Positions 3,379 through 64,000 of a DNA stretch of 64,000 nt are shown piece by piece. The notes under the pieces were generated by a model. That model was not told where the DNA came from. It searched no databases and saw nothing but the letters and a program-made list of their open reading frames with translations. The stretch is taken from positions 1 through 64,000 of the IMG/VR virus record IMGVR_UViG_3300035660_000005. The stretch is one strand, 5' to 3'. Source of the stretch: a virus. A program made the translations under genes and the position numbers. How positions within the stretch are numbered: the first letter of the stretch is position 1; each line of letters begins with the position of its first letter.

Positions 3379-3638
3379 TCGGAGCACCTCTCAAGAAGGA
3401 CCGCCACCTCGGCCTCCAGCGCGAGCTTGGTCAACGACAGCATGTAGTAGAGTTCCCACGCTGCTGTGCCCGGTGGAGCCAAGTGACTCGCGGACTTGCG
3501 CGCACGTGTCTCGATGGAGTCCGGGCCCCTCTTGCAACCTCGGATCCGATTGTAGTAGGCTTGCCTCTTGGACGAGGCCCGTGCACCCTCTGAGATCTTT
3601 TGTCGACGCTCTAGTTCGTCTGCGGTTGGTGCCGTCAT
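3375..3638 (-). CDS. Small basic protein, unknown function
   Basis: The 87-residue product begins MTAPTADELERRQKISEG and carries a basic middle (RGCKRGPDSIETRARKS), then a helical end (MLSLTKLALEAEVAVLLERC). I use the ATG at 3638: it has an AAGGGGG ribosome site and overlaps the stop of the DpdA-like gene as ATGA. A longer in-frame start at 3683 would run into that gene. The mix of basic segment and helix would suit nucleic-acid binding, but there is no recognised domain. Confidence 0.6.
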   Translation of the reverse strand: MTAPTADELERRQKISEGARASSKRQAYYNRIRGCKRGPDSIETRARKSASHLAPPGTAAWELYYMLSLTKLALEAEVAVLLERCSE

Positions 3639-4426
3639 GATAACCCCCTTGCGAACTGCAGTAACGCCGCAGCATTCACGCATGCACGACGGCGCGCTCT
3701 TAGATCTGGCTTGCGGTGTAGGTCACTACTGCCGACGTTGTCGACGTAGCGCGCCTTGCCGCCGAGCTCAAGTTCGACGCCGCAGCACGCGGCCCAGTAC
3801 GCGAACGCGCTGTCGTTCGAGCGCACCAGAGCGTGAGGATGACTCACGAGACGAACAATCTCTTGCGTGAGTGAGCCATCGGCGCCGAGTAGGTGGATCG
3901 ACTTTCCAAGGTGCGTCACCGCATCAATGGCTCTGGCTCGGGAGTCCACAAGACTCGGCGAGTCGAAGCGCGAGAAGCACCGTCGGACAGAGTACTTGCT
4001 AAGGCCCAACGTGCGCACCGTCGGTAGAGTGGCCAGCTTGTCAGCACACTTCACGTACTCAGAGACGGTCGCGCCTTGCGGTACCGCCATGATGGTTGTG
4101 AAGTGATCAACACGTCGCATGAGTGTACCGATGAAATCACGAGTCGCTTCGACCGTACCAGGGCCGTCGAACAGTACGTCAGGGGCGACAACCTCCACAG
4201 CACCAATCTCGGCGGCAAGGTCGATCAGTGTGTCGTTGTCAACCAAGGCACCCTCAGCAGTGCCATTGTCAAGTAACACGAACCTACCCGCTGCGGCCGC
4301 ACGCTTGTAGTATGCTCGGTACCCTTCGTTGTCGCGCGCTAACGGCGCTAGACAGAACTCCAGGTCGCCCAGCGCGCACAGATCCAAGAAGTGAACAGAG
4401 CTGATGAAGGCCAAAGCCAGGCGCAT
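3635..4426 (-). CDS. dpdA-like: TGT/DpdA-like (deaza)guanine transglycosylase family protein
   Basis: The 263-residue sequence follows the barrel order of tRNA-guanine transglycosylases and phage DpdA proteins. It has a FVLLDNG strand with D53, APDVLFD with D83, an AVPQG loop (residues 114-118) where family members have QGG, then TLGLSK, a HLLGADG strand near 178-184, and RSNDSAFAY with D205 in the region of the TGT nucleophile. Family members swap guanine for a 7-deazaguanine base: tRNA for TGT, DNA for DpdA. It is short, like small phage DpdA forms. A clear QueD lies at the right edge of the window, so a DNA-modifying role is plausible. The assignment rests on motif order only. Confidence 0.6.
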   Translation of the reverse strand: MRLALAFISSVHFLDLCALGDLEFCLAPLARDNEGYRAYYKRAAAAGRFVLLDNGTAEGALVDNDTLIDLAAEIGAVEVVAPDVLFDGPGTVEATRDFIGTLMRRVDHFTTIMAVPQGATVSEYVKCADKLATLPTVRTLGLSKYSVRRCFSRFDSPSLVDSRARAIDAVTHLGKSIHLLGADGSLTQEIVRLVSHPHALVRSNDSAFAYWAACCGVELELGGKARYVDNVGSSDLHRKPDLRARRRACVNAAALLQFARGLS

Positions 4427-4438
4427 CGACTCTACCTC

Positions 4439-4657
4439 CTACTGGTTCGCCACGTACCGCTTGCAACGACGACACATCCGCAACGTCGCCACAGGGTGAC
4501 GTCCGGACACGTCGTGTCCGAGACGGTGACAGATGAAGGCGCTTCCGTCGACCTTGTCCGCCAGATGGTCGGGCTGCGTGATCATGCCGATACCATGCAG
4601 CAGTCGTGAGAACGCGAGCGCTGCACAACCAACCACCTTGTTCATGAGTTCAACCAC
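4439..4657 (-). CDS. Small Cys/His protein, unknown function
   Basis: The C-terminal half has C-H-x2-G-H and then C-x2-C (ICHRLGH ... MCRRCKRY), a likely small zinc site. The N-terminal half is a short hydrophobic helix (KVVGCAALAFSRLL). The start is uncertain. GTG at 4657 sits eight bases from a GGGGAG ribosome site and gives 72-73 residues; ATG at 4645 gives 68. It lies directly downstream of the primase gene. Similar tiny Cys/His proteins are frequent in phages, but no role can be assigned. Confidence 0.5.
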   Translation of the reverse strand: MVELMNKVVGCAALAFSRLLHGIGMITQPDHLADKVDGSAFICHRLGHDVSGRHPVATLRMCRRCKRYVANQ

Positions 4658-8394: not shown

Positions 8395-9803
8395 AGCTTT
8401 ACCACCTCCACCGCGGCTCCTACAGACTTGTACGCTCTGGCACGCTCGCGTGCTTGCCGGAACATCGTTCTGGAATGTGTGTCCCAAAGATCGATGACCT
8501 CGAGTCGATCCTTGCCCTCGGCCGTGCGGCTACCGCGACCGATGCGCTGCACGACAACATGCTGAGCGCGACCGCCACCGGCGATCACCAGACCAGCGAG
8601 TTCTGGCACGTCAACCCCCTGGTCGAAGATTACACTTGCAATTATAATGTGCTCACCGCCATCGCGCAACCTTTGCAGCACGTCCTTGCGCGTAGCTACC
8701 TCCGAGGAGCCGTGCACAAACGGTGCGCCTAGCGCTTGAGCCAGGCGAGCGCCGTGCTCGATCATGTTGACAAGTACCAACGTTGGGCGCCCGTCGCGCG
8801 CCAAGGCTTCGGCTGCGGCTACGATGGCCGCGTTGCGTGCATCGTTGCGGACTATCGCGCTACGGTAGAGAGCCGCGTAGTGTGGGAAGTGCCCATCAGC
8901 GACGTCGAACATCACCTCCGGCCATGAGGCCAGTGGTGTGGCGACGTTCCACTGAAGCATCGTAACGAACGCCGGCACACTGACGCCCCTCTGCACTGCC
9001 TCCTGCGGAGACAGCTCCATGATGACGGGGCCTGTAGCGCCGATGAGTTGGAGCCGCGCACGATCGTCGCCCTGCTTGAACGGTGTGGCCGACCACCCAA
9101 AGCGGTAATAGGCCGGTACGGACATCACGACGGGCATGTACGTTTTTGCCGGAAGGGAATGGCACTCGTCGTCATGCACGACGTCGAAACTCCGCAGTAC
9201 GTAGCGAGCCTCCTGTTCGTCCGTTCGTAACCATGATCGTAGTGACTGAAGCATGGCGATTGTCACATCGCCCAACTGCCGGCTTCCTGCCCCGAAGACA
9301 CCGATACGCACACCCGGCAGACGCTCCTTGAACCGCTTGGCAGTCTGCACAGCGAGGTCACGACTGTTGACCAGGACAAGCGTCCGCAGTCCAAGTGCTG
9401 CCGTGATGGCCATCATCATCTCGGTCTTGCCCGTGCCGGTTGCCATATGGAAGACTCCACGCTCGTGCTCAAGAGCGGCAGCAACCGCCGTCTCCTGGTA
9501 ATCTCGCAGCGCGACGGCCAACTTCCATGGGGTGCCCGGTTCTGGTTTGGAGCGGTCATAAACGTACTCGAAGACGATGTCCTCCGCAGTGAGTGCTGCG
9601 GCCACATGCTCCACCAGGCCGGCCGGGAACGCTCCGCGTCGAGACAGTAGAGTGCGCCGACCATCCCACTTGCCTGCCTTGTAAGCTCGCGTGAACCGGA
9701 AACCCTTGTCCCAGTAGCTGAGCGCCTCTCGAACGGTACGCAGTGCAGCGGGTGGACCCTCAACGCCCGCCAGCGTGTTCGTGACGTAGAGCCTCGTGCT
9801 CAC
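8391..9803 (-). CDS. uvsW-like: UvsW-like superfamily 2 helicase
   Basis: A 470-residue helicase. Residues 1-90 resemble the UvsW N-terminal domain (YVTNTLAG ... WDGRRTLLS ... FPAGLVEHV). Then come an RDYQ Q-motif-like element, Walker A MATGTGKTE, a DDECH box, SATPF and a C-terminal arginine-finger motif QRIGRGSR. UvsW-type enzymes unwind branched DNA and R-loops and switch replication from origin to recombination mode. Start: GTG at 9803, overlapping the polymerase stop (GTGA) with an AGGTGAGG ribosome site. The 30 residues upstream in the same frame lie inside the polymerase gene and are left out. Confidence 0.85.
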   Translation of the reverse strand: MSTRLYVTNTLAGVEGPPAALRTVREALSYWDKGFRFTRAYKAGKWDGRRTLLSRRGAFPAGLVEHVAAALTAEDIVFEYVYDRSKPEPGTPWKLAVALRDYQETAVAAALEHERGVFHMATGTGKTEMMMAITAALGLRTLVLVNSRDLAVQTAKRFKERLPGVRIGVFGAGSRQLGDVTIAMLQSLRSWLRTDEQEARYVLRSFDVVHDDECHSLPAKTYMPVVMSVPAYYRFGWSATPFKQGDDRARLQLIGATGPVIMELSPQEAVQRGVSVPAFVTMLQWNVATPLASWPEVMFDVADGHFPHYAALYRSAIVRNDARNAAIVAAAEALARDGRPTLVLVNMIEHGARLAQALGAPFVHGSSEVATRKDVLQRLRDGGEHIIIASVIFDQGVDVPELAGLVIAGGGRAQHVVVQRIGRGSRTAEGKDRLEVIDLWDTHSRTMFRQARERARAYKSVGAAVEVVKL

Positions 9804-12739
9804 CGCCTCACCTTCTGCGTCCTGCCGACGTACTCGGTAGACATGGACTCGCGCACGCGCGTCACGAACGTGCCAGCCCTCAGCTCGCTCCACCCGCGCT
9901 CGAGATCGTCGAGTGTGAGCTCTTTGTCTTCACCCCAGCGCTCGCGCACCTTGACGGCTACGGGCAAGTACCACCCATCCGGCCACCTGAGTCCGCCCCA
10001 GTATCGATTCGTCGCGAAGGGGATGATCAGCTTCGGTACACTATACATGACGTCGTGGATGAGCCGCTTGCAGGCGTCGATGTGCTTCGTAGGCACGACG
10101 GAGATCAACGAGTCATGCAGGCTGATGGCGAGGTGGGCTCCATACTCGTGGTGAAACACTCGTGCTGGGTAGTCCCCAAAGCGCTCTCTCAGCAGTCGAT
10201 GTATGAGGATGCTGTCACCGTACTCCTCGACGCCCTGCCAGTCGTTCAACCCGATCGTTGCGAGGTGCAGAATGTCCGCCGCCGAGCCCTGTGGGAACAT
10301 GCTGATCGCCTCTCTACGGAAGTGTCCTTGCTCCCAGTTCGGACGTCCGTAGACGAGCCCGTCTATCTTCCATTTCCGGAAGTGGCGCACTCGGTCGAAG
10401 ACGTTGGCCGCGATGCGGCGCTCGTTAAGGAGCGCTCTGACCTGGTCGTGATATTCTCTGATCGCCGGATAGACCTTGAAGTAGTTGTCAATCTCCGCCT
10501 TGGCCTCGTCAAGGGGAATACCGAACGCCGCAGCAACGGAGCCCGGCCCACGACCGAAGTTCACACCATGGGTGAAGGTCTTGGCCTTCATTCTGTGGTC
10601 GCCAGTAACCTCCTCAAGTGGCACGTGGAGAACACTCACGGCTGCGGCCGCATGCATGTCCAAGCGCTTATGCCCTGTCAATGCAAGGTGCTCCTCGAGC
10701 TCGTCTGGGATCTCGAAGTACAACGAACCGCAGGTCGCGCAGGACTGCAACTGCTGTATGTAGAGATCGCAGCCGGCCACGTACGCCTCGATCCTGTTCT
10801 CAATCTGGCTGTAGTCCGCATCAACGAGAAGGTGATCAGCGGGTGCGCGAATCATGTTGCGCACGACCGGACTACCGGGTGGGTTCTGCACGTTCGGTCT
10901 GGAGCTCGAAAGGCGCCCACTCTCAGTGCCTGGGATGTGGAAGGTTGGATGCAGGCGACCGTTGGGTTTGACGTATCGCAGCCACGCCTTCGCCTTGTCG
11001 GTTCCGTCACCAATGAATGTCGAGCGCAGCTTGAACACCTGGCTCAGCTCGAGTAGCGTCGTCAAGACCTCTCTTTGCAAGGACGTGAGCTTCGGCGTCT
11101 CGAGTAGGTCCAGTATCGAGCCCTTGGACGACTCACCCTTCGCGGAACCCTGTGAGCCGGCCTTCTTCGTCTCCTCCGCGCTGGGCCTCTTCAAGCCCAG
11201 TCCGATCTTCACGCCCTCCTCACCAATGTGTTCGTACAGCAACCGCTTCAGCTGTGTGTGACTGTTGTAGTTTGTGGGCGGCCTAACGCCACCCCGAACG
11301 AGCACCTCGTCGAGGTGCTCCCTGAGCTCTCTCACCTTCTTGTCTATTTGTGTCCCGAGAGCTCGCATGTACTCGACGTCCATTGGGATGCCTTGGCTTG
11401 ATGCGTACGTCAGGGCGCGCGACAGCGGCATAGCGATCTCATGGAGCAGCCACTCGCCTGCTGGGTTTATCCTGCGCAGCTTCTCGAGTGTGATGTCCTT
11501 GAGGCGACGCTCGCAGTCGGCGTCGGTTGCACTGTACGTCCAGAGTGTCTCCTCAGGGGCACACGCGTAGGAGTGCTTGATCGTCGGTGCCCAGCGCTTG
11601 AGTTCTACATCGTACTTGGGGAAGATACCGTAGACCTCACTCAAGTGTTCGAGGTCGTGAGACCGCTTCTGTTCGTGGTAGAGATGATGTGAGAGCATCG
11701 TGTCGTACTCGAAGCGGCGGACACGGATGTCAAGCTGCTCACGGCAGAAGGCTATGTCGAACGCACCGTTCTGTGCGGACTTCGGCACATCACTCTCGAG
11801 GATCTCCTTGAGTACGGCCTTCACGCACACCAGCGCCTTCGGAGACCACAGTGTGCGCGGCGTACCGCGCCTCGTCCCTACGGTCTCGAGCACTTCTTCG
11901 AGCGAGAGACCGTCGCATTCGATGTAGCGGCCGACCAGCGGTATGACGTACCCTTCACCTGGCACCGTTGAGAAACTAGCGCACAGCACCTGGTTCTCAT
12001 ACGGATCCAAGCCCTCGGTTTCGAGGTCGAATGTGATCTCTTCTGCACTGAGTAGGTAGTCCCGCAACTCGTCGAGCTGTACCAGCGCTTCGGTCTCGGT
12101 GCACTCCGGACCGGGCACGACTATGCGGTAGTCGCCAAACGCCTCGAACTCGCCGGCCTCTTCCTTTGTCGGTTCCGGTAGCGCGTTGGGTTGCAACGCA
12201 TCGTACGCCCGTTGCAGGTCAGCACGGAACTGCTCCTCGTACTGATCCTCATGTTGCATCACTGCACTTGGGTGGTACGTGACGACAGTTTTGACTCCAA
12301 ACTGGTCGCACTTGAACGGCTTGCCGCGCGCCTGTCCGACGGGCATCTCACAGTGCACGGCATCGAGCGCGGAACCACCAAGTGCTACGATGAGCTTCGG
12401 GTTGAGTTGCTCAACGTCCTCCTTGAGGTACTGACGGCAGATCCCGATCTGCTCCGTCGTCGGAGGTGCCTGTGTGCCGCCGCGCTTCGGTGGCCAGCAA
12501 CGGCAGGCGTTCGCGTATGCCACACGGGCTGGGTCGAAGCCGACTTGGCGCAGTCCGTCCCTGAGGTACTGACCGGCTCGTCCTACGAATGGACGTCGTC
12601 GCTGGTCCTCGTCCCTACCGGGTGCCGCACCAACAAACAGTACATCAGCACCCTCAGGCAGTGTCGAGTTGACAACTGCGCTGCGGGGCTCGCGGGACTT
12701 CCAGAGTGGACAGAGCCTGCAATCGGGTGGTGCTGGCAT
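9800..12739 (-). CDS. polA-like: Uracil-DNA glycosylase / 3'-5' exonuclease / DNA polymerase A fusion
   Basis: A 979-residue fusion. Residues 1-180 are a family 4-type uracil-DNA glycosylase with GAAPGRDED, PFVGRAG, HPSA and four cysteines placed as iron-sulphur ligands (C7, C10, C79 or C81, C101). From about 230 there is a proofreading exonuclease (FDLETEGL). From about 450 there is a polymerase A core: motif A DADYSQIE near 640, motif B RMKAKTFTHGVNFG near 720, motif C HDSLISVVP near 876. In motif B, His replaces the usual Phe/Tyr that discriminates sugars. A Cys2-His2 element sits between motifs A and B. ATG follows directly on the sigma-like gene stop. This is the phage replicative polymerase. 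Confidence 0.92.
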   Translation of the reverse strand: MPAPPDCRLCPLWKSREPRSAVVNSTLPEGADVLFVGAAPGRDEDQRRRPFVGRAGQYLRDGLRQVGFDPARVAYANACRCWPPKRGGTQAPPTTEQIGICRQYLKEDVEQLNPKLIVALGGSALDAVHCEMPVGQARGKPFKCDQFGVKTVVTYHPSAVMQHEDQYEEQFRADLQRAYDALQPNALPEPTKEEAGEFEAFGDYRIVVPGPECTETEALVQLDELRDYLLSAEEITFDLETEGLDPYENQVLCASFSTVPGEGYVIPLVGRYIECDGLSLEEVLETVGTRRGTPRTLWSPKALVCVKAVLKEILESDVPKSAQNGAFDIAFCREQLDIRVRRFEYDTMLSHHLYHEQKRSHDLEHLSEVYGIFPKYDVELKRWAPTIKHSYACAPEETLWTYSATDADCERRLKDITLEKLRRINPAGEWLLHEIAMPLSRALTYASSQGIPMDVEYMRALGTQIDKKVRELREHLDEVLVRGGVRPPTNYNSHTQLKRLLYEHIGEEGVKIGLGLKRPSAEETKKAGSQGSAKGESSKGSILDLLETPKLTSLQREVLTTLLELSQVFKLRSTFIGDGTDKAKAWLRYVKPNGRLHPTFHIPGTESGRLSSSRPNVQNPPGSPVVRNMIRAPADHLLVDADYSQIENRIEAYVAGCDLYIQQLQSCATCGSLYFEIPDELEEHLALTGHKRLDMHAAAAVSVLHVPLEEVTGDHRMKAKTFTHGVNFGRGPGSVAAAFGIPLDEAKAEIDNYFKVYPAIREYHDQVRALLNERRIAANVFDRVRHFRKWKIDGLVYGRPNWEQGHFRREAISMFPQGSAADILHLATIGLNDWQGVEEYGDSILIHRLLRERFGDYPARVFHHEYGAHLAISLHDSLISVVPTKHIDACKRLIHDVMYSVPKLIIPFATNRYWGGLRWPDGWYLPVAVKVRERWGEDKELTLDDLERGWSELRAGTFVTRVRESMSTEYVGRTQKVRR

Positions 12740-13321
12740 TTAATCGTGCATCAAGTGGAGCCGCCTGGCGGCCTCCTTGAGTTCTCCCATGCCCTGTACT
12801 CCTCCGAACACGACATGTGCAACCTCGAGGAGGAGCCGGCGTGTGCTCGATGTCGGGAGTCCGAGCATGCGAGCTGCTTCTCGCTTGCTGTAGTCCTGCA
12901 CGAGCACAGCGTGTGCAAGTCTGAATGCGTCGTTGCTGACGGACCCCCTAAGGTCCTCTACGACCGCCGCGACACTTGGGCGCCCGAAGCTGAGGTCCGG
13001 CACGCAGGCCGCGATCTCATCCGTCAGTCGAAGCATCTGGGCGTGCTCCCTCCGATGCTTCAGCTGTCGCGCACGTCGTTGGGAAAGGCTGGACAAGCTC
13101 CTGCGCATGGCGAGACGAAGGAGTGTATTGAACGACGCGCCGCGCGAGGAGTCGTAGGCCCTGTCCACGCGCAGGAACGCGTTGTGTGCTTCATCGATGA
13201 GCTCGTCGACGTCGACATGACGTGCGTACGTAGCCTTCGCGTAGCGCACTGCGGATGCGATAAGGGGTCGTGTCTCGATGTAGCGGGCCGTGGTCAACTC
13301 AGCGGACCTAACATGCTTCAT
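12740..13321 (-). CDS. Sigma-70-like transcription factor
   Basis: A 193-residue protein whose first half resembles sigma region 2 (HVDVDELIDEAHNAFLRVDR, then FNTLLRLAMRRSL). Its end has a region 4-like helix-turn-helix (YSKREAARMLGLPTSSTRRL). The size fits small alternative sigma factors. It ends directly before the polymerase ATG and overlaps the SprT-like stop. If functional it could direct middle or late phage transcription, and the two copies of a 52-bp element in the divergent control regions are candidate targets. Alternative: a replication-linked DNA-binding protein with a similar fold. Confidence 0.6.
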   Translation of the reverse strand: MKHVRSAELTTARYIETRPLIASAVRYAKATYARHVDVDELIDEAHNAFLRVDRAYDSSRGASFNTLLRLAMRRSLSSLSQRRARQLKHRREHAQMLRLTDEIAACVPDLSFGRPSVAAVVEDLRGSVSNDAFRLAHAVLVQDYSKREAARMLGLPTSSTRRLLLEVAHVVFGGVQGMGELKEAARRLHLMHD

Positions 13322-13866
13322 CAGCTTACTCCCTTGAAACGTGAGATGTCAAGCGTCGAAACGCGCCTGCGCTTGCGCTCACGGTAACGGCGGCCCCACT
13401 CGCGCTGGTGCGCCTTGCGCTCCTCGTCCGTTAGCCGGCGTGGTCGAGGACAGGCAGCTCTCGGTGCAACCTTGAGTCCTGCCTCCCTGGCACTGAGGTA
13501 AAGTACACCATACGAGCCGAAGCCGTGTTCCTCGAGCACCATCAAGAAGGCAGCCATGAACTCGGGTCCGTGTCCGCACCAACAACCAACAAGAGCGTGC
13601 ACCGTCTCGTGCAGAACCACCAGAGTATGCCGAGCCCACCTCGGCAGGGTAATCAGCCACGGCGAGCCACGCGCCATCCGCCACTTGTGAGCTGTCGCCC
13701 TCACACGAGGGCCTTCACCAGACTTGTAGCGCTGCCAGACCTCTCGAACCAGGTCGGCACACTGCGTAGCGGACAGTTGAATGTTCGCCGGCGAGGACTG
13801 GAGTTGCGCCTGCCAGCGGTACTCTCGCTGCCGCTGAAAGTCCCTAATCTTGGTCACGATCTGCAC
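13321..13866 (-). CDS. SprT-like zinc metallopeptidase-fold protein
   Basis: A 181-residue protein with a HETVH zinc motif followed by GHGPEF, the arrangement of SprT/Spartan-type and related small phage metallopeptidases. Cellular relatives degrade DNA-protein crosslinks. The basic C-terminus contains REWGRRYRERKRRR, a motif shared with two neighbouring ORFs. Start is GTG at 13866 with an AGGGAAGGG ribosome site, overlapping the upstream gene by 23 bp. Proteolytic activity is inferred only from HExxH. Confidence 0.65.
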   Translation of the reverse strand: MQIVTKIRDFQRQREYRWQAQLQSSPANIQLSATQCADLVREVWQRYKSGEGPRVRATAHKWRMARGSPWLITLPRWARHTLVVLHETVHALVGCWCGHGPEFMAAFLMVLEEHGFGSYGVLYLSAREAGLKVAPRAACPRPRRLTDEERKAHQREWGRRYRERKRRRVSTLDISRFKGVS

Positions 13867-15697: not shown

Positions 15698-16069
15698 ATG
15701 GGAGTTCCACTTAAACGTCGCACCGCACGAGAGATGACTGAGCCGGAGCGGGCTTGGGTAGGAGCGCTGCTTGAGGGCGAAGGCAGTGTTTACCCTAACG
15801 GCGGCGGCACCACGATATGCGTAGCTAACACCGACCTCGAACTGATCTCGGCTTTGTTACGGCTCACTGGGGTTGGATGCGTGTCTCTGCAGACACGTGC
15901 AGGGCAACGTAGAGGAAGTGGCACCGCCCGTCATGATCTTTGGTTGTGGACTCTCCACCGACACAACGACGTCTACGCGGTTGCCTGCCAGTGCACCGAG
16001 TATTCGCAGAAGGCTCAACGCGCCATGAAGCTTATCGAACAGCGGGAGGCCAAGCGTGCAGAGCACTAA
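15698..16069 (+). CDS. LAGLIDADG-type homing endonuclease, single motif
   Basis: A 123-residue protein with one LAGLIDADG-like helix, AWVGALLEGEGSVYP, whose acidic end carries the catalytic-type Glu. A beta-rich core (GGTTICVANTDLELI ... LTGVGCVSLQTRAG) and a basic C-terminus follow. Single-motif forms act as dimers. It opens the rightward operon, with a GAGAGGTGAG ribosome site, and overlaps the RNase HII start by 14 bp, so it is probably a free-standing selfish gene inserted at an operon head. Residual activity cannot be judged. Confidence 0.75.
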   Translation: MGVPLKRRTAREMTEPERAWVGALLEGEGSVYPNGGGTTICVANTDLELISALLRLTGVGCVSLQTRAGQRRGSGTARHDLWLWTLHRHNDVYAVACQCTEYSQKAQRAMKLIEQREAKRAEH

Positions 16070-16724
16070 GCCAATCACAATCGGCGTCGACGAGTGTAAT
16101 TTTAGTCCGAGTATCTGTGGCGACTGTGTAGTCGCGGCTTGCACGTTGACTGCCGAGCCACCTGAGGGGCTGCTCGGAGACTCCAAGAAGCTGTCGCGGG
16201 CACGACGGCTCGCAGCCTTCGAGTGGCTGCAAGAGAACTCGCTGTACGTCGTGGAGATCGCCGCAGTGAACCACATCTCGCTCTGCGGTGTGTACAAGGC
16301 GCGCAACGCAGCCGCGAGGCGGGCCGCCGAGGGCTTGATAGCCCTCCTGGAAACCCAGGACGTGTGCGTCGTCATCGACGGCAACCCCTTCCCGTTGGGG
16401 TCACCAGGACGGCTGTGGCAGCACTCAACCCAGGTGAAGTTCATCGTACGTGCCGACGAGACCGTGCCCGAGGTCTCGGCTGCGTCCATTATTGCCAAGA
16501 CCTACACTGACGCCCTCTTCGACGGCTGGGGTCGGAACTGGGCTGGCTACGGTATGGAGCGCGACCACGGCTCCCCGAGTACGAAGCACAAAGACGCACT
16601 GCGCAAGCAAGGCCCATCGCCGCTACACCGCACCCACCACTACGGAGCCGACTGGTGGAAGCAGCTACTGGGTACGGACTGTCACTGCGGTTCGATTGGG
16701 CGTCGATACCCCATCGGGTCGTAA
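16056..16724 (+). CDS. rnhB: Ribonuclease HII
   Basis: A 222-residue RNase HII. The first active-site motif is GVDECN (usually GVDEAG), followed by GDSKKLSRARR, a VVIDGNP strand carrying the second Asp, ADETVPEVSAASIIAKTYTD, and a DHGSPSTKH loop with the last acidic and His residues. The enzyme cuts RNA in RNA-DNA hybrids, removing primers. It starts with GTG at 16056 after a GGGAGG site, inside the end of the LAGLIDADG gene. The altered residues after DE in motif I are unusual but leave the catalytic pair intact. Confidence 0.88.
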   Translation: MQSTKPITIGVDECNFSPSICGDCVVAACTLTAEPPEGLLGDSKKLSRARRLAAFEWLQENSLYVVEIAAVNHISLCGVYKARNAAARRAAEGLIALLETQDVCVVIDGNPFPLGSPGRLWQHSTQVKFIVRADETVPEVSAASIIAKTYTDALFDGWGRNWAGYGMERDHGSPSTKHKDALRKQGPSPLHRTHHYGADWWKQLLGTDCHCGSIGRRYPIGS

Positions 16725-16743
16725 AGAGCAGGGGGAGACACTC

Positions 16744-17112
16744 ATGCTGAGCATCACGACCAAGGTCACAGTTCCAGGCTACCACCATTGGGCCGGCGCT
16801 CCGGACAATGCACAGAACTTCCTGAAGAACATCCACCGACATCTCTTCACGTTCGAGGCCGAGGTGCAGGTAACCGGAAGCCGCCAGGTCGAGTTCTTCG
16901 AGTTGCAGGAGCGGATGCGCTACATACTCGAGAGGGTCGGCTACTTCAACGGCCTACTTGTGAGCAGACATGGCACATCGATGTCGTGCGAGCAGATGGC
17001 TGAGACGATGGCACGGGCGCTGTACAACCAGCACGGTCACATGGTGCTGAAGGTGTCCGTGTCAGAGGATGGCGAGTCTAGCGGGACTTGGACGCGCGAC
17101 CGATACGAGTAA
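16744..17112 (+). CDS. Divergent PTPS/QueD-fold protein
   Basis: A 122-residue protein with the zinc-histidine layout of 6-pyruvoyl-tetrahydropterin synthase folds: a first His pair H14/H15 (GYHHWAGAP), then H31-x-H33 (IHRHLFTFEAEVQV), a SCEQMAETMA segment matching the family's conserved Cys/Glu region, and a terminal VSEDGESSG strand with Glu. It lacks the full LHGHxY motif of the authentic QueD at 63379. It may bind a pterin- or purine-like substrate in a different reaction. ATG at 16744 has a GGGGGAG site. It sits next to a purine phosphoribosyltransferase. Confidence 0.55.
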   Translation: MLSITTKVTVPGYHHWAGAPDNAQNFLKNIHRHLFTFEAEVQVTGSRQVEFFELQERMRYILERVGYFNGLLVSRHGTSMSCEQMAETMARALYNQHGHMVLKVSVSEDGESSGTWTRDRYE

Positions 17113-17115
17113 GTC

Positions 17116-17631
17116 ATGCGGCAGTTACTGACGCGCGAAGCGGTTGAGGACATCGTGCTCGCACTCGCCGAGCGCATCGAGGACGATGAGCGCCTCGGCG
17201 ACGACCCCCTGATGCTCGGTGTGTTGAATGGTGCGTTCATGTTCGTCGCTGACTTAGTGCGCGCACTCGAATGTGGTGTCGCGTGGAGTCATGGCGACGT
17301 CGCATTCATTGGTGTGTCCAGCTACGGCGACAAACAGACCAGCTCCGGTGAACCTGTGTGCACCTACCGACCCGATGTGAACCTGCGCGGACGAACCATA
17401 CTACTGGTGGAAGACATCGTGGATAGCGGCTGCACCATCGAGTGGCTCGACAGCTACTTACACGATGCTGGTGCCGAGCGTGTGCTTGTGTGCTCGCTGC
17501 TGGTGCGTGAAGGCAAAGAGCACCTGGTGGACTTCATCGGGCGCGTGATCAAGCACGGCGACTTCGCATTCGGCTACGGCCTAGACTTGAAGCACCGCAT
17601 GCGGGGCCTGCCGGACATATGGGTCGAGTAG
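17116..17631 (+). CDS. hpt-like: Hypoxanthine/guanine phosphoribosyltransferase-like protein
   Basis: A 171-residue type I phosphoribosyltransferase. The PRPP-binding motif LLVEDIVDSGCTIEWL lies at residues 96-111, with the Glu99-Asp100 pair; GVLNGAFMFVADLVRAL supplies the first loop; and FAFGYGLD near the end is typical of hypoxanthine-guanine enzymes. It would convert a purine base and PRPP to the nucleotide. Phages rarely carry this enzyme. With the deoxyribosyltransferase-like gene downstream and the QueD-like gene upstream it forms a purine-handling group. It begins three bases after the previous stop. Confidence 0.85.
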   Translation: MRQLLTREAVEDIVLALAERIEDDERLGDDPLMLGVLNGAFMFVADLVRALECGVAWSHGDVAFIGVSSYGDKQTSSGEPVCTYRPDVNLRGRTILLVEDIVDSGCTIEWLDSYLHDAGAERVLVCSLLVREGKEHLVDFIGRVIKHGDFAFGYGLDLKHRMRGLPDIWVE

Positions 17632-17644
17632 TAGGGAGGCCAAC

Positions 17645-18187
17645 ATGAGTGGCAGCAAGACACGAGCCAGCTTGGCAGTCGAGCTCCGCTTGACGGAGCC
17701 GATCACCGTCTACCTCGCCGGCCCGATCTCGCACTTGTCGTACGACGAGGCCATGAGCCGTCGCGCCGAGCTTATTGAGCCGCTGCGGGCCGCACAAGTC
17801 ACCTACGGAATCAGGTTCGCCATTCGTTCCCCCATGAGGGGCAAGATGTTCCTAGCGCACGTGCGCGGTCCGTTGAAGCCCGGTGGCTATCGGCAAGCCA
17901 TGAGCACCGACTCGGCCATCGTCGGCAGGGACGAGACAGATGTCCGCGTCTGCGAGGTCATGATCGCAGACTTCCTCGGTGCGCCCGAGAAGAGCATCGG
18001 CACTTGTGTCGAATTCGGCCTCTGCTTGGCGTGGCATAAGTTCGTGATCATGATCATCGAGGAGGGTAAGCTCAACCCTCACGACCACGGCTTCCTCCGG
18101 CGCATCGCCCACTGTATAGTCCGCACGCGGGAGGAGGCGGTCAAGGCGCTGCTCCAGTATGCAGGAGTCGAGCCGGACGAGAGCTAG
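17645..18187 (+). CDS. Nucleoside 2-deoxyribosyltransferase-like protein
   Basis: A 180-residue protein with an N-terminal TVYLAGPIS strand-loop, a Rossmann-like core, and GTCVEFGLCLAWHKFVIMI carrying the family-type Glu. These are hallmarks of nucleoside 2-deoxyribosyltransferases and related N-glycosidases, which exchange or remove bases on deoxynucleosides. There is a GGGAGG ribosome site, and 13 bases separate it from the phosphoribosyltransferase. It could release or swap a modified base on nucleotides; substrate unknown. Confidence 0.7.
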   Translation: MSGSKTRASLAVELRLTEPITVYLAGPISHLSYDEAMSRRAELIEPLRAAQVTYGIRFAIRSPMRGKMFLAHVRGPLKPGGYRQAMSTDSAIVGRDETDVRVCEVMIADFLGAPEKSIGTCVEFGLCLAWHKFVIMIIEEGKLNPHDHGFLRRIAHCIVRTREEAVKALLQYAGVEPDES

Positions 18188-37735: not shown

Positions 37736-38047
37736 CTAATCAGTACTGCATTGTACTGGATGAAGTGCTGCCCATGCTGGCGAGCACTGGATCAAGACGG
37801 TAGCTGTCACAGTGGTCGGGGAGCGAGGAGTTGAACCTCGGCTTCCTGGTCCCAGGCCAGGGGTGCTGCCGTAACACCTCTCCCCGACTAGAGCCGGCTC
37901 CGTTGGCGTCGCGGGCTCGACGGCGGCGGCCGCTGGCGCGGAGCTCGTGCCGGCAGTGGGGCTCGGCTCAGCACTTGAACTGTACAACGTATGCGCACTC
38001 ACCAGCAACACAACGACGGTCAGCAGCTTCAGCAGGAAGGCGAGCAT
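37736..38047 (-). CDS. Putative membrane-anchored peptide; 3' half overlaps the tRNA
   Basis: ATG at 38047 overlaps the upstream stop (TGATG). The first 20 residues form a signal anchor (MLAFLLKLLTVVVLLVSAHT), followed by a Ser/Pro/Ala-rich stretch. The later part of the frame is the tRNA-Pro sequence read as codons, so the reading frame past about 37886 may be fortuitous. The N-terminal part may be real and could end early by transcript processing at the tRNA. The length is therefore uncertain. Confidence 0.35.
   Translation of the reverse strand: MLAFLLKLLTVVVLLVSAHTLYSSSAEPSPTAGTSSAPAAAAVEPATPTEPALVGERCYGSTPGLGPGSRGSTPRSPTTVTATVLIQCSPAWAALHPVQCSTD
37813..37886 (-). tRNA. tRNA-Pro (anticodon TGG), encoded CCA
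   Basis: Reverse-strand cloverleaf of 74 nt. Acceptor stem CGGGGAG/CTCCCCG; D-stem GTGT/GCAC; anticodon stem CCTGG/CCAGG with loop CCTGGGA (anticodon TGG); T-arm CGAGG-TTCAACT-CCTCG; discriminator A; genomic CCA end. Position 33, normally T, is C, and position 8 is A rather than T. The acceptor end resembles cellular tRNA-Pro. All stems pair fully, so the gene is likely functional, though with odd conserved positions. Confidence 0.75.
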
Positions 38048-45497: not shown

Positions 45498-45799
45498 AGG
45501 AAGAGTCGCACCTCGTCTACATCGTTTGGCGCGACAGCGTCGGCGCACCTCACTACGTGGGCTGCGATTGCGAAGACATACCGGCGACTATCCTGCTAGA
45601 GGGCGTGGCCTGGATCGTGAACGAAACCGAACAGGATCTGGTCGTCGCGGCCTACCGTTCGAACGACGGCGGCTGGATGGATGTAGTCGCGATTCCACGA
45701 TGCGCCATCGAGAAGATCTACCGCATCCAATGGCCCCAACCGGTGCTGCAGGTCGAAGCGATTAAGCTGGATGCAGACTTCCTCGGGGCACCGGACTAG
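45494..45799 (+). CDS. Small beta-rich protein, last gene of the rightward operon
   Basis: A 101-residue product starting MKEESHLVYIVWRDSVGAPH and continuing YVGCDCEDI, with alternating strands (DLVVAAYRSNDGGWMDVVAI) like a small barrel. Its stop converges with the stop of the 1425-residue gene on the other strand (4-bp overlap), ending the operon without an obvious terminator. No family recognised. Confidence 0.5.
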   Translation: MKEESHLVYIVWRDSVGAPHYVGCDCEDIPATILLEGVAWIVNETEQDLVVAAYRSNDGGWMDVVAIPRCAIEKIYRIQWPQPVLQVEAIKLDADFLGAPD

Positions 45800-48700
45800 C
45801 GGGTAGTCACGACTGGCTTGCGCTTCGCGAAGCCACCCATACTGAGCCCGCGAATCTGCCCGCTCTTCACGAGACGCCAGCCGGCGTCGTTCCAGAGTAC
45901 GCCCATCCACACGCTGTTGGCGGGAATGGTCGTCTCCTTCGACTTACCGTCAGGAAGTGTGAGCTTTGTCGTGACCTCCCAAGGCCACGCGACGATGTCG
46001 ACCCACTCACCAACGGGGATGATCCCTGCAGCGCCGTGCTGAAGATAGATGCGTCGGTCGCCGGCCTGCACGTAACCCCACTGTCCCTTCTGGAGCTCGT
46101 CTGCCATGATGAACTCGTCGTGGGCGTCGAGCTCTGGGTCACGCGGCATGTTGGTAGCCTTGTAGCAGACACCGAACGTGTACTGCTCCTCAGCGGCCTT
46201 CTCGAGCACGGTATACTCGAACGGCTGGGTGTCGCCACTCTTGGCGACCTCCGCCTGGTCGGTGTGGCTCGCACCGGCAGCAAGCGCGAACATCTGTCCG
46301 TCCAGGCCCACCTCTCCGAACAGGAGCTCGCTCTCGTTCCAGTTGCGCAACAGGTCGTCGTCCACGTTGACAAGTACCAGCTTCTTGACGCCGGCAGACT
46401 TCAGGTCACGCGACGCATCAAGCGCGGACGGCAGTGCCCTGCCGCCTGGTAGGTACTGCGTGTCCTTCCAGCCGTGCGCTCCGGCGAAGACAAGGTCAGC
46501 GTCCTCCACCATGTAGCGGTCGGGGCCAAGTGGTCCCCAGATGATGGTGGTGCGCTTCTCTTCCTTCTCGTCATAGACTGCGATCTCGAAGCAGACCGCT
46601 CCCTCTTCGCCAGCACAGCGGCCATAAGCACCCCATGGGCGCACGTACACACGGTCTTGTGAGTAGCCTGCATCGTAGCCAGTGCACAGCTCCACGCCGA
46701 GTGTCTCTGCCTGCTCCTTGATGTCCGCCAGATGCGTGTTGTACGGGTTGGTGATGAACCACGCGTCCACTGCCTTCGGCAGCTTCTCGAGTAATCCTGG
46801 TCCGCCGTCGAACACGAACGACTTGTTCGCCACCTGAACAAGCAGTCCGTACGGGGAGATGCGCGACTCTACCTGCTCGCCGCCGGTGCCGAGTAGTGTC
46901 ACCTTGATGTCGGCCGCCTTGACCAGACGTGGTCCGTTCTCGTCCAGTACCAAGTCGAACAACGGCGTCGCTTCTGGGTCGCCACGTCGGTCGAACTTCA
47001 CGGCGGGCACAACCCCTGCCGAGCCTGCGATCAGTGTCGCGATGCCCTGAGCCAGACTTGGACTCCAGTACTCGGGTTCGCGGTCAGCCGCCTCGCGCAC
47101 TACCAACTCGATCGTCTTCGAGCCGGCCATCGGCTTGTACGAGATGAACGCTGGGATGACAGTCGGCACGCCCTTGATCTGCCAGACCCACTTGCCGTGC
47201 ACCTGTCGGTACAGTGTGTTCCCGCCACCGTGGTGCTTCGAAACGGTGTCGGACTTGACGATGTTGGGGTGCTCCTCGACCCACTTCTTGGCGCTGGTGA
47301 GTGTCCACTCGTCGTCCGTCGGGAACCTGAGCGCCTGGACTGTGGTGGTCTTCTCCCCCTTGAGCTTCCCAATCACGGCGAATACTCGAGGCTTGGTAGC
47401 CTGGATGGTGATGCGTCGGAACGAGTCCTGCTCGAAGTCACCAGGCTCTCGCACCCTATGTCGAATCTCGTTCTCCGTCGTCTCCCAAGCCTTTGCCAGC
47501 ATCTCCTCGGTCTCCTTCTTTACGACGCCGGCAAGCACCTTCCACTGATCAGCGTCCTCCACTTCCAGTGCCGCCAACAGCGCGTCGCCACTCTTTGGGA
47601 TGTCGATGAAGTACGGACCATGGGCACCATCACTCCACACCAAGTGTGGTTGACGCTTTCCGCGTAGCTCCTTGATGACGTCGGCGAGCTTGTGCTCCTC
47701 GGCGTAGGGCGTGTCGGACTCAGGCTTGCTGACGAGCCACACACGCCGACCACCCATCGGTGCGAACGTGATCTGGTAACGACCCTTCACCTTCGAGCCG
47801 CTCAGGAACACCTCGAACATGTGCTCACGCGCCACACCCAGTTTGTACGTGCCTCTGTCGTACACAAAGAACTTGGCCCATGCCTGTGACGTGGCGCCGA
47901 CCTCCTCCGGCTCCGAGATTGCCGGCTTGCCGACGCCAACGTTCAGCCACTCCGTCGGCTGTGCTAGCTTCCACGAGCCCTGAAGGCTATCGTCTGTCGG
48001 CAGGTTCTGGAGACGGTCGCCACCGGCAGCCTTCACCTCAGACGCCTTGCCCAGGAATGTTGTGAAGCCCCACAGTGCGTCCTCGCCCTGCAAGCGGAGG
48101 TCGCCGTGCACCGAGTGGTCGGTGTCGAGCAGGGTAGACTCACTGGTGCCCTTCGCTTCATCCTCAGTCAGGCCACGCCAGTGGTGATGGTAGACGAAGC
48201 GTCCACGACCCGAGCGTGGCAGTGCGTCGAACCAGCTCTTCTTCCAGTAGGCAGCTACCTCGCCGGCACGGCCCTCTTCCTCGTGTGGGCCTGCCTTCGC
48301 GAGTGAGAACATCAAGCTCTGCGGCACGAACTCGAAGTCGACTACCTTCATCCCTCTGCGCCTTGAGCGTGTAGCGACGCCTGGTACCGACCACAACTCG
48401 GCGTTCGGGTCGCAGTCATTCGACGCCATATGGTAGTCGTCGCAACGCTCGCAGAGGATGATTGTGCTCTTCTGCGTCGGCTCCATCTTCTCCTCGCGGA
48501 GTGCGCCGTAGCGGCGAGCCAGATCGATTGCTTGCTGCACCGTGTACGCTGGTCGGGAGCGATCAGGTCCCTGCGGTGTCGGCTTGCCCCACGTGAGCGT
48601 TCCGTCGCTCAGTAGGATCATCTCCTCCACCGTCACGTTGAGTGTGTCGCCCTCGCCCGCCAACTGTGTCGGCGAGACGAACGTCTTGCCCAGTTTCTGG

Positions 48701-54617: not shown

Positions 54618-55172
54618 TTAGAACCCCGCTCTCAGTGAAAGGACAGGTATCGGAATGAAGTTGCTTGCATAGGTTGCACCCACCATTGGGTTCGGCAGTG
54701 GATAGGCGTTGGTCTGTTGGAGCATCGCGAGCACAGTCATGCACGAGCCACCGGGAAAGTAGGCGTAGGGCCACTTGGGGGAGACGCTAGAACACACCAT
54801 GGCCATGTAGTACCCACCAGGGTTGAGCTGGGTGTCCGCGATGTCGTAGGTCTGCCAGGTGTTGGTGCCGACCAGTGCGACGCCGCCGACGGACACCAAC
54901 CGGTTGCCCCCCTTGTCGTAGATCCCCACGTCGACGTTACCGCCAAGATTGAGTGTGGCGATAAACCAAGCCAGTTCGCGGATGATGACCGTCCGACAGA
55001 TAACGAACGGGATGTAGAACGCCAGGTTGGTTGTCGGCCACGACGCCGACGTGCCCATGGCTCCGTAGTACTGCGGGCCGGACATCGCCATGATAGCCGC
55101 ACCAATCGACTCCTGCGAGTAGGGGTGAATCGTCGGGAGTGGCCACGTGTCGGGGATCAGCGGAACATCCAT
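54618..55172 (-). CDS. Receptor-binding-like jelly-roll protein, paralog 1
   Basis: A 184-residue protein with a jelly-roll like core: VDVGIYDKGGNRLVSVGGVA, GTNTWQTYDIADTQLNPGGY, YMAMVCSSVSP, and LQQTNAYPLPNPMVGATY. The next gene (55173-55709) shows the same order of motifs, so the two are tandem duplicates. Located in a block with the fibre-like gene, they are candidates for receptor binding or surface decoration. Confidence 0.6.
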   Translation of the reverse strand: MDVPLIPDTWPLPTIHPYSQESIGAAIMAMSGPQYYGAMGTSASWPTTNLAFYIPFVICRTVIIRELAWFIATLNLGGNVDVGIYDKGGNRLVSVGGVALVGTNTWQTYDIADTQLNPGGYYMAMVCSSVSPKWPYAYFPGGSCMTVLAMLQQTNAYPLPNPMVGATYASNFIPIPVLSLRAGF

Positions 55173-55709
55173 TTAGATGATCCCCCTCGCACCCAGTCCG
55201 AACTTCCACACGCGGTCATTGGTGACGCGAACAACGGTGCCCATGATGGCTGGTAGTGGGAAGGCACTGCTCTGCTGGATCACGCCCATGCCCTGCTGGT
55301 ACTGTGCATTGCCACTGATCTGGCCGAAGAACCGTTGCGTAGTGTTGTCGCAGGCAAGCGCGAGGTAGAACAGTCCGGGCCCGATGAGTGTATCCGCGAC
55401 ATCGACGACCTGTACGGTCTGCGTTCCAGAGGGAACAGTCGAACCGGTGCTGACCAAGCGCCGACCGTCGAACGTGTAGATGCCTACGTCCCAGTGGCCG
55501 CTGATCACGTCACCGTTACATGCCCACAGCGTGAGGACCAATAGTGGTGAGGCAAGTCGGAATGGGTAGTACAGCGCTCGGTTGGTAGAGCTCCAAGTTA
55601 GGGAGGCGCTAGCCGATCCCCAAGAACCGACTCCGCCCATGCTGCAGACCGAGCACGGATCGATGACGATCGGAAAGTCGAGCAGGGTGAGACCAGACGG
55701 GTAGTCCAT
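55173..55709 (-). CDS. Receptor-binding-like jelly-roll protein, paralog 2
   Basis: The 178-residue product from the ATG at 55709 (AGGGA site; the longer frame to 55793 overlaps the next gene). It shares with paralog 1 the segments WDVGIYTFDGRRLVSTGS, GTQTVQVVDVADTLIGPGLF, YLALACDN and QQSSAFPLPAIMGTVV. It differs in its N-terminus, which carries CSVCSMGG cysteines. Tandem duplication followed by divergence is likely. Confidence 0.6.
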   Translation of the reverse strand: MDYPSGLTLLDFPIVIDPCSVCSMGGVGSWGSASASLTWSSTNRALYYPFRLASPLLVLTLWACNGDVISGHWDVGIYTFDGRRLVSTGSTVPSGTQTVQVVDVADTLIGPGLFYLALACDNTTQRFFGQISGNAQYQQGMGVIQQSSAFPLPAIMGTVVRVTNDRVWKFGLGARGII

Positions 55710-61269: not shown

Positions 61270-61709
61270 GGCCTCGTCCACGCAGGCATCCAGGGATCGA
61301 AGACCAGTTCCCACCAGAAGCAAGGCCCACTCACAGAGGTCAAGCGCTTGTCCACGGTCTCGACGCGATGTAGCCAGAGCAGCGGCATCCCGAGTGCCAA
61401 CGCTACGTCGCGCGCTCTCGGCCCCGCCGCCTCATCGTTGTAGCCTACCGTGATCATCGGAAGCATGCGCGCGTGCGAAGATCCGCCGGTGCAGACGCCT
61501 TGGCAGGACGAACCAGTTACGACGCCGGCCTCCCACAGTCCCCACACCAGCTCGTAGATGCCTGGATCAAGATGACAGTCGGCAGTAGAACAATCCTCCG
61601 GCGCATCAGGCGCGTGGTGCCGACAGTCGCCCCAGACGTCCGGCTCAAGCAGGGCATACCACAGACGGGCGAGTCGTCTCCGAAATGTCATGTTGATCCA
61701 CTGCTTCAT
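61266..61709 (-). CDS. Cys-rich small protein, unknown function
   Basis: The 147-residue product from the ATG at 61709 (ATGA overlap with the YkgJ-like stop). It contains CRHHAPDAPEDCSTADCHL and CQGVC segments with possible metal binding, and ends with a Trp-rich stretch (GPCFWWELVFDPWMPAW). No family recognised. Confidence 0.5.
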   Translation of the reverse strand: MKQWINMTFRRRLARLWYALLEPDVWGDCRHHAPDAPEDCSTADCHLDPGIYELVWGLWEAGVVTGSSCQGVCTGGSSHARMLPMITVGYNDEAAGPRARDVALALGMPLLWLHRVETVDKRLTSVSGPCFWWELVFDPWMPAWTRP

Positions 61710-63378: not shown

Positions 63379-64000
63379 TCATGCCAAGCGGTGCTGAACG
63401 CGCCGACCACGGCCTGTCTTGACCACCTCGCCGGCGTCGCGCAGAACGTGAAGGGCACGATGGAGGCCGCCTGCCACGCTCACGTAGGCGCTCAACTCGC
63501 GGGCTGTCTTTGGGCCGGTTGAGAGAGCGACCAAGATGCGCTTTCCTTGAGTCATGTCCGAGGTGATGGACACCGTATGGTCAGTGGGGACACTACCGTG
63601 ACGCTCGGGTCGCCAGGGCTTGAGTTCCGCATCGTACTCGGCGTAGCCGGATTCCGTCTCCCACACGCGGACCTTCTCCACGTAGGCCGGCATGTTCCCG
63701 GTCACCTCGAGTTCAGCCACCAGGAATCGGTAGATGTGGTAGGCGAGCTGCTCCGCGGTGGTGACCTCCACGCCCAACGTTGGAGCTGACTGGTTCAGGA
63801 ACGTATGATCGAGCAGTCCATGCAGCCTCTTCAGTGCAGCACCGACAGCGGTGAAATCGACGAGCATGCCCTCCTTGGCGTGACCGTGACCACAGGGCAC
63901 GAGACTGCGACCTACGATGAACACCTCCACTGTGTACTTGTGCCCATGGAGGTTGTGACACCTGCCGTCGTGGTTGGGCAGTCTGTGCGCACACTCGAGC
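63379..64000 (-). CDS. queD: QueD (6-carboxytetrahydropterin synthase) with C-terminal winged-helix domain, 5' end outside
   Basis: The frame runs off the right edge. It reads ECAHRLPNHDGRCHNLHGHK, then YTVEVFIVGR, with the zinc histidines of LHGH, the upstream His and a catalytic-type Cys (GRCHN). Downstream come DFTAVGAALKRLHGLLDHTF and VRVWETESGYAEYD with the late Glu. The final 70 residues are a winged helix (GKRILVALSTGPKTARELSA, HRALHVLRDAGEVVKTGR), not part of normal QueD. QueD makes the precursor of preQ0. The gene overlaps nothing and lies seven bases before the DUF5664-like gene. Confidence 0.85.
   Translation of the reverse strand, partial: LECAHRLPNHDGRCHNLHGHKYTVEVFIVGRSLVPCGHGHAKEGMLVDFTAVGAALKRLHGLLDHTFLNQSAPTLGVEVTTAEQLAYHIYRFLVAELEVTGNMPAYVEKVRVWETESGYAEYDAELKPWRPERHGSVPTDHTVSITSDMTQGKRILVALSTGPKTARELSAYVSVAGGLHRALHVLRDAGEVVKTGRGRRVQHRLA

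What the first reader, a model, noticed from the sequence alone, without database searches (positions are those of the whole stretch)
3635..4426. DpdA-like gene in the replication operon suggests modified phage DNA
A protein with TGT/DpdA motif order sits among recombination and replication genes. DpdA-type enzymes insert 7-deazaguanines into DNA and occur in phages with restriction-resistant DNA. Together with QueD and a DUF5664-like hydrolase in the same window, it points to a 7-deazaguanine pathway. QueC, QueE and FolE are not visible here and would have to lie outside or in the host.
Basis: partly seen in the sequence, partly recalled or inferred. Interest (0 to 1): 0.75.

Follow-up and report, generated by a model that had tools for sequence, protein, structure and literature searches.

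The report
Phage DpdA-like enzyme, QueC-less deazaguanine pathway
The gene very probably encodes an enzyme that swaps guanines in the phage's own DNA for a modified base, and the same phage carries the genes to make that base, with an unusual protein standing where the usual last enzyme of the pathway would be.

Summary
Confirmed: window 3635-4426(-) is a 263-aa gene with a strong ribosome site. No Pfam or NCBIfam family names it, but its AlphaFold2 model (pLDDT 91.7) aligns best with tRNA-guanine transglycosylases (50 of 50 listed structures, Z 18). The catalytic residues of phage 9g DpdA line up with residues invariant in 48 of 48 family sequences. It is not a DpdA1 (9g type); its family includes proteins of Campylobacter phage CP220 and Cellulophaga phage phi13:1. 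The family sits beside folE/queD/queE far more often than control loci do. No queC was found. Instead, window 16744-17112(+) encodes a QueD-fold protein (T34) that keeps the zinc histidines but has lost QueD's catalytic Cys/His. T34 and QueC never occur together in 49 records searched whole (30 T34, 15 QueC, 0 both) or in 80 T34-seeded loci (0 QueC). Best reading: FolE-QueD-QueE make CDG, T34 converts it (perhaps by decarboxylation to 7-deazaguanine), and the DpdA-like enzyme inserts the base into DNA. The DUF5664-like hydrolase is real but not linked to the pathway. The DNA chemistry is untested.

The parts
3635..4426 (-). DpdA-like DNA-guanine transglycosylase gene (263 aa; PHROG 20335 family)
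   Evidence: ORF; AF2 pLDDT 91.7; 50 of 50 VIA-align rows are TGT/arcTGT, Z 18.1-18.5; D53, D83, H178, D205 in register with 9g DpdA D72, D114, H196, D215
4435..4440 (-). Shine-Dalgarno AGGAGG of the dpdA-like gene
   Evidence: sequence read directly
16744..17112 (+). T34: QueD-fold paralogue (122 aa, PHROG 17812), mutually exclusive with QueC
   Evidence: AF2 pLDDT 86.1; E. coli QueD Z 14.5, 2.1 A over 114 residues
16731..16737 (+). GGGGGAG, likely ribosome site of T34
   Evidence: sequence read directly
63379..64000 (-). QueD (6-carboxytetrahydropterin synthase); the gene runs on to 64026, beyond the window
   Evidence: PF01242 E 3.5e-31 and 2e-29. FolE (record 72214-72885, -) and QueE (record 73023-73931, -) lie outside the window

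Best explanation
The gene encodes a TGT-fold DNA-guanine transglycosylase of the DpdA kind. Phage FolE, QueD and QueE turn GTP into 7-carboxy-7-deazaguanine (CDG). No QueC makes preQ0; T34, a remodelled QueD paralogue, acts on CDG in its place, most simply as a decarboxylase giving 7-deazaguanine. After replication the DpdA-like enzyme attacks C1' of a deoxyguanosine with D205 (general acid D53), releases guanine and inserts the 7-deazaguanine base, which should block many restriction enzymes. Shown here: genes, folds, conserved residues, co-occurrence, QueC/T34 exclusion. Inferred from known families: FolE/QueD/QueE chemistry and base exchange. Inference only: DNA (not tRNA) as substrate, T34's reaction (about 50% for decarboxylation), and the restriction benefit.
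For: Fold: all 50 listed rows are TGT or arcTGT, Z 18.1-18.5, rmsd 3.1-3.8 A, 233-239 aligned; Foldseek's top hit is TGT 2nso E 1e-6; in the viral library, phiST M4SLA5 E 5e-20 and phage 'queuine tRNA-ribosyltransferases'. Residues: profile alignment puts D53/D83/H178/D205 on 9g DpdA D72/D114/H196/D215, and D205 on E. coli Tgt D264; D53, D83, H178 and D205 are invariant in 48 of 48 sequences incl. CP220. Company: FolE+QueD+QueE all within reach in 33 of 68 family loci and 0 of 80 RecA control loci; any of the three in 45 of 68 and 2 of 80. No DpdA1 in any of the 44 family-carrying records; it was found in 3 of the other 5. Own FolE PF01227 E 2e-50, QueE PHROG 2076 E 1e-34, QueD. T34 versus QueC in 49 whole records: 30 T34, 15 QueC over cut-off, 0 both (Fisher p 2.5e-9, not corrected for kinship). 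T34-seeded loci: 0 of 80 QueC, while 26 carry the DpdA-like family and 22 carry DpdA1. L030 (T34) and L078 (QueC) are sister DpdA-like proteins, support 100/97.
Against: No sequence profile of a known TGT or DpdA family matches the protein on its own, and profile alignments to DpdA1 and TGT are weak (E 0.0026 and 0.0029, probabilities 12% and 11%), although genuine DpdA1 against TGT scores worse (E 0.012, 3.5%) in the same test. A shared fold does not show the substrate. 21 of 68 family loci show none of the three synthesis genes (or QueC) within the flank. The record is not proven complete, so QueC could be missing only from it. T34's chemistry is a guess; G014 has T34 and a 47-position sub-threshold QueC-like match (E 1.5e-4). 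P0001's place in the tree is unresolved and its composition is atypical.
Confidence: 0.78

Rival explanations
1. Same enzyme, but T34 is not on the base pathway: CDG itself is inserted (dCDG), or the host's QueC supplies preQ0.
For: Hutinet 2019 raised the CDG option for phage Bipper, which lacks queC (passage); Bipper lacks T34 too. Hosts commonly have QueC (12 to 14 of 14 control genomes match).
Against: T34 replaces QueC without exception in the 49 records and in the 80 T34-seeded loci, with two different DpdA types, which an unrelated protein would not do. It keeps QueD's zinc triad and anchoring glutamate.
Confidence: 0.25
2. The enzyme modifies tRNA, or boosts host queuosine, rather than DNA.
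For: Its fold is that of tRNA TGT. The phage carries 22 tRNA genes including all four GUN-anticodon tRNAs, Tyr, His, Asn and Asp.
Against: No PF01702 match, no CxCxxC zinc motif in the protein. No QueC, and a QueD paralogue instead. The family includes CPT_0056 of CP220; Campylobacter phages of this group were reported as highly modified by dADG (Hutinet 2019 passage).
Confidence: 0.08
3. The base is built into a deoxynucleotide and inserted by the polymerase; the TGT-like protein is secondary. The phosphoribosyltransferase and nucleoside deoxyribosyltransferase genes just after T34 (17116-18187,+) would do this.
For: T34, PF00156 and PF05014 genes lie in tandem. Hutinet 2019 mentions possible undetected 2'-deoxyribosyltransferases and a modified-dGTP route (passages).
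Against: PF05014 occurs in 2 of 49 records and PF00156 in 11 of 49 over cut-off, so neither is a steady partner; the TGT-fold gene with invariant catalytic residues is.
Confidence: 0.06
4. A TGT-fold protein repurposed for something other than nucleic acid, as with Cap10 in type IV CBASS.
For: Cap10-CdnD is among the Foldseek hits (9ntn_A, E 1e-3).
Against: TGT scores far better, and the DpdA catalytic residues are kept. The gene keeps company with base synthesis genes.
Confidence: 0.05

Closest known systems
CPT_0056 of Campylobacter phage CP220 (DpdA3, a label recalled from Cui et al. 2023, not checked)
   Same: Same sequence family: E 1.5e-29 by profile, 211 columns at 22% identity; phage with QueC and QueE
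   Different: CP220 has QueC and no T34; very long branch in the tree
phi13:1 gp036 / phiST M4SLA5 (Cellulophaga phages) and MA9V-3 XQU63045
   Same: Unnamed homologues (27-28% identity); phi13:1 and MA9V-3 have FolE, QueD, QueE, T34 and no QueC
   Different: P0001 falls outside their well-supported clade; an AAA_18 kinase gene lies just before theirs, not in this phage
DpdA (DpdA1) of Enterobacteria phage 9g
   Same: Fold class and the D...H...SxDS catalytic order
   Different: No detectable sequence-family match: PHROG 887 does not find it; 9g has a QueC-family protein, known as Gat-QueC (PMC6884629 passage)
Z. mobilis / E. coli tRNA-guanine transglycosylase
   Same: Barrel fold; nucleophile position
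   Different: Longer; P0001 has no PF01702 match and no zinc motif
E. coli QueD, for T34
   Same: Fold Z 14.5 over 114 residues; zinc His triad and Glu110 equivalent kept
   Different: Catalytic Cys27 replaced by Leu in 35 of 35; no equivalent of His71

Membership tests
DpdA (phage DNA-guanine transglycosylases), broad sense | TGT-type barrel | tested here: met
   50 of 50 listed rows TGT/arcTGT, Z about 18
DpdA (phage DNA-guanine transglycosylases), broad sense | Catalytic residues incl. the histidine at position 196 (named in Hutinet 2019) | tested here: met
   D53/H178/D205 in register with 9g D72/H196/D215; invariant in 48 of 48
DpdA (phage DNA-guanine transglycosylases), broad sense | Genomic link with 7-deazaguanine synthesis genes | tested here: met
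   Own FolE, QueD, QueE; 33 of 68 family loci against 0 of 80 controls
DpdA (phage DNA-guanine transglycosylases), broad sense | Base exchange in DNA | not testable with these tools
   needs enzyme assay or nucleoside mass spectrometry
DpdA1 (9g type, PHROG 887) | Sequence-profile match to the subfamily | tested here: not met
   hmmscan lists PHROG 20335, 15826 and 723 only; PHROG 887 absent from the record
DpdA3 (CP220 type; label recalled) | Homology with the CP220 protein | tested here: met
   family profile hits CP220 54696-55364 at E 1.5e-29. That this protein is the published DpdA3 is recalled, not checked
tRNA-guanine transglycosylase (PF01702) | Pfam TGT match | tested here: not met
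   0 Pfam families at E<=1; the model also misses real DpdA of 9g, so it speaks against tRNA-TGT, not against DpdA
tRNA-guanine transglycosylase (PF01702) | CxCxxC...H zinc site (motif recalled) | tested here: not met
   cysteines at 17, 25, 127, 150, 214, 215, 249 only
QueD, for T34 | QueD fold and zinc His triad | tested here: met
   Z 14.5; H14/H31/H33 opposite H16/H31/H33; that these bind zinc is recalled
QueD, for T34 | Catalytic Cys27 and His71 (roles recalled) | tested here: not met
   Leu at the Cys position in 35 of 35, no His opposite His71
DpdL (CDG decarboxylase predicted in Cui et al. 2023; recalled) | Identity with the published protein | not testable with these tools
   paper not held; no paper with this sense of the term found

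The most novel reading that the evidence does not exclude
T34 (PHROG 17812) is an undescribed enzyme that took over QueC's place: a QueD paralogue that has lost QueD's catalytic cysteine and histidine and converts CDG, probably to unsubstituted 7-deazaguanine. It works with two widely diverged DpdA types and marks a large QueC-less branch of DNA-modifying phages. In this phage it would lead to extensive 7-deazaguanine in DNA. If the 2023 DpdL is this same protein, only the distribution and the exclusion rule are new.
Probability: 0.35. Interest if true: 0.72.

Novelty: new member of a known kind. Interest (0 to 1): 0.55.

Why it matters
It names an unnamed protein family (PHROG 20335, 'hypothetical' or oddly named in every deposited phage found here) as DpdA-like transglycosylases, and gives a simple rule (T34 or QueC, never both) that predicts which modified guanine a phage carries. 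The prediction is easy to test in cultured phages such as Cellulophaga phage phi13:1/phiST, so the unknown DNA chemistry of a large set of uncultured phages becomes testable. If T34 makes 7-deazaguanine, it shows how a zinc pterin enzyme was turned to another reaction on a related ring.

Tried and rejected
DUF5664/PF18909 as a pathway gene: rejected, 3 of 49 records. Nucleoside deoxyribosyltransferase as a steady partner: rejected, 2 of 49. Phosphoribosyltransferase: 11 of 49 over cut-off, optional at most. PF01702 as a test for rival transglycosylases: useless, it misses 9g DpdA. A residue rule at S143/K144 for CDG against preQ0: S143 and K144 are invariant in the 32 QueC-less-clade rows but also common in QueC rows (K144 in 7 of 11), so not diagnostic. 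Close relatives of this phage by its PolA: none matched. Single-protein scan of IMG/VR with P0001: none. Family in bacterial/archaeal genomes: none by one short pattern, weak evidence. Solved structures by sequence: nothing relevant for the DpdA-like protein. No match of the first 25 kb to phage records by megablast. The ORF test across the record ends gave several open frames and no verdict on circular permutation. A QueC motif search (SGGxDS or Cx8CxxCxxC) in the record found none.

Rows dropped: in the 68-locus counts, 8 of 76 family loci were left out by judgement as repeats or scraps (L012, L027, L050, L053, L074, L077, L079, L082); the tree and conservation used 46 of 76 full-length relatives (four of them named phages) after a redundancy filter, plus P0001 and CP220. 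Whole-record searches used 38 of the 76 IMG/VR family records, mostly the longest. The 80 T34-seeded loci are the best 80 of 389 and include at least four contigs already seen (L348, L352, L353, L377).

Full report
WHAT IS THERE. The ORF at 3635-4426(-) is real: 263 aa, ATG start, AGGAGG nine bases upstream, inside a minus-strand run of RecA, gp32-like, primase, helicase and PolA genes. No Pfam or NCBIfam family matches it, and the only strong PHROG hit is 20335, of unknown function. In deposited phages its relatives are 'hypothetical', or carry names such as polynucleotide kinase, integrase or NadR. tblastn found it in 12 of 50,697 phage records, and a profile-guided scan found 76 loci in IMG/VR.

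FOLD AND RESIDUES. With a 43-sequence alignment AlphaFold2 gives pLDDT 91.7, pTM 0.90. All 50 listed structural alignments are bacterial or archaeal tRNA-guanine transglycosylases, Z 18.1-18.5 over 233-239 residues, 3.1-3.8 A, 14-16% identity. Foldseek's own list also holds aldolases and other barrels at weaker E-values. Profile alignment with 78 DpdA1 sequences puts D53 on 9g D72, D83 on D114, H178 on H196 and D205 on D215; the alignment with 81 bacterial TGTs puts D205 on E. coli D264. Taking D264 as the nucleophile and D72 as the counterpart of the TGT general acid is recalled from TGT enzymology. The profile scores themselves are weak (E 0.0026 and 0.0029), but accepted DpdA1 against TGT scores worse (E 0.012) in the same test, so sequence alone could not have shown it for either. 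D53, D83, H178 and D205 are invariant in 48 of 48 sequences. H196 is the residue position that Hutinet et al. 2019 name as conserved in DpdA and missing in DpdA2 (passage).

WHICH SUBFAMILY. It is not DpdA1: PHROG 887 finds 9g, Bipper and phiSM and none of the 44 records that carry this family. The family does include CPT_0056 of Campylobacter phage CP220 (E 1.5e-29; 22% identity over 211 columns). Hutinet et al. 2019 placed Campylobacter phages among those with synthesis genes but no DpdA, and cited a report that their genomes are highly modified by dADG (passage). I recall from the abstract of Cui et al. 2023 that a subfamily DpdA3 was later described that allows complete guanine replacement; the paper is not held (its title was seen in reference lists), so equating this family with DpdA3 is recall plus inference.

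COMPANY. Within the fetched flanks, FolE, QueD and QueE all occur in 33 of 68 non-redundant family loci and in 0 of 80 control loci seeded on phage RecA; at least one of them in 45 of 68 against 2 of 80. In this phage QueD is at 63379-64026, FolE at 72214-72885 and QueE at 73023-73931 of the 78,297-base record. The own QueE keeps the three cluster cysteines. If the genome is circularly permuted, FolE/QueE would lie about 8 kb from the dpdA-like gene, but the end-joining ORF test did not settle this.

QUEC AND T34. QueC is not found in the record at E<=10, nor by motif. A gene cluster analysis of the family loci turned up a small conserved protein, phi13:1 gp034 and relatives, here called T34. 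In this phage it is 16744-17112(+), 122 aa (profile E 1.1e-30, from an alignment that includes it). It is PHROG 17812, unknown function. Its model (pLDDT 86.1) aligns best with E. coli QueD, Z 14.5, 2.1 A over 114 residues, and its profile with QueD, E 5e-8. It keeps the three zinc histidines and the glutamate opposite Glu110, but has Leu for Cys27 and nothing for His71 (the roles of these QueD residues are recalled). In 49 records searched whole, T34 occurs in 30 and QueC over its cut-off in 15, never both; four have neither, one of them phage Bipper. Of the 30 T34 records, 25 have QueE. One T34 record (G014) has a 47-position sub-threshold QueC-like match. At locus level the table is 29 FDE+T34, 8 FDE+QueC, 0 with both T34 and QueC, of 72 loci. 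A separate scan seeded on T34 gave 80 loci: FolE 54, QueD 42, QueE 46, QueC 0, this DpdA family 26, DpdA1 22. The exclusion is not one inheritance only: T34-bearing L030 and QueC-bearing L078 are sister DpdA-like proteins (100/97), and P0001 itself falls outside the large QueC-less clade, though its exact place is unresolved.

MECHANISM. Shown: genes, folds, residues, co-occurrence. From established families: FolE, QueD and QueE yield CDG (pathway as restated in PMC13329287, passages), and DpdA exchanges guanine for a 7-deazaguanine base in DNA (PMC6884629, passages). Inferred: T34 acts on CDG, since it takes QueC's place and its fold binds rings of the same kind; decarboxylation to 7-deazaguanine is the simplest reaction and agrees with my recall that dDG and a predicted CDG decarboxylase (DpdL) appear in the 2023 abstract. 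I put the DNA transglycosylase at about 0.85, T34 as a base-modifying enzyme at about 0.75, and decarboxylation at about 0.5.

RIVALS. Direct insertion of CDG or host-made preQ0 would leave T34 unexplained. A tRNA role is the best biological rival, because the phage has 22 tRNA genes including all four GUN tRNAs, but the zinc site and Pfam TGT match are missing. A nucleotide-level route through the neighbouring transferases is not supported by their distribution.

Right on the gene, on QueD, and on FolE/QueE lying outside. The DUF5664-like gene exists but occurs in only 3 of 49 records. QueC is replaced rather than hidden.

LITERATURE. Seen as passages only: PMC6884629, PMC13120357 on MA9V-3, whose authors name FolE and QueE but not DpdA or QueC, PMC13329287, PMC12783734, PMC11097641. 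Searches for DpdL, DpdA3, dCDG and Cellulophaga phage terms in the held library found no description of T34 in the listings seen; most subscription papers are not held, so this does not show that T34 is unpublished.

Noticed in passing
L002:8374-10163 (record 68374-70163), plus window 37813-37886: An array of 21 tRNA genes on the minus strand and a separate tRNA-Pro: 22 in all, every amino acid except Cys, including all four GUN (queuosine-type) tRNAs.
   Followed up: partly
window 9800-12739: Family A DNA polymerase with an N-terminal uracil-DNA glycosylase domain (PF03167 E 1e-27, PF00476 E 6e-49).
   Followed up: no
window 45796-50073: A 1425-aa protein with an ATP-dependent DNA ligase domain and an XkdF-like phage protease domain in one frame.
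   Followed up: no
window 16056-18187: Plus-strand run RNase HII, T34, phosphoribosyltransferase, nucleoside deoxyribosyltransferase-like; the last two are not steady partners of the pathway.
   Followed up: yes
L005:19487-19984, L004:19534-20004 and most QueC-less loci; L090:10494-11036: A P-loop (AAA_18) kinase-like gene lies directly before the dpdA-like gene in most QueC-less relatives, and P-loop proteins flank the CP220 gene; none next to it in this phage.
   Followed up: partly
window 62279-63001 and 61706-62104: ClpP-like protease (PF00574 E 2e-32) and a CxxCxxCC metal-chelating protein beside QueD and the DUF5664-like gene.
   Followed up: no
L063:9067-9978, L075:7507-8472, L032:6324-7247, L073:9168-9983: In some relatives the T34 frame runs on to 270-320 aa, so T34 may be fused to a second domain there.
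   Followed up: no
window 13321-13866: SprT-like/HEXXH metalloprotease-like protein (PF10263 E 0.014, TIGR04338 E 2e-4) next to a sigma-factor-like gene.
   Followed up: no
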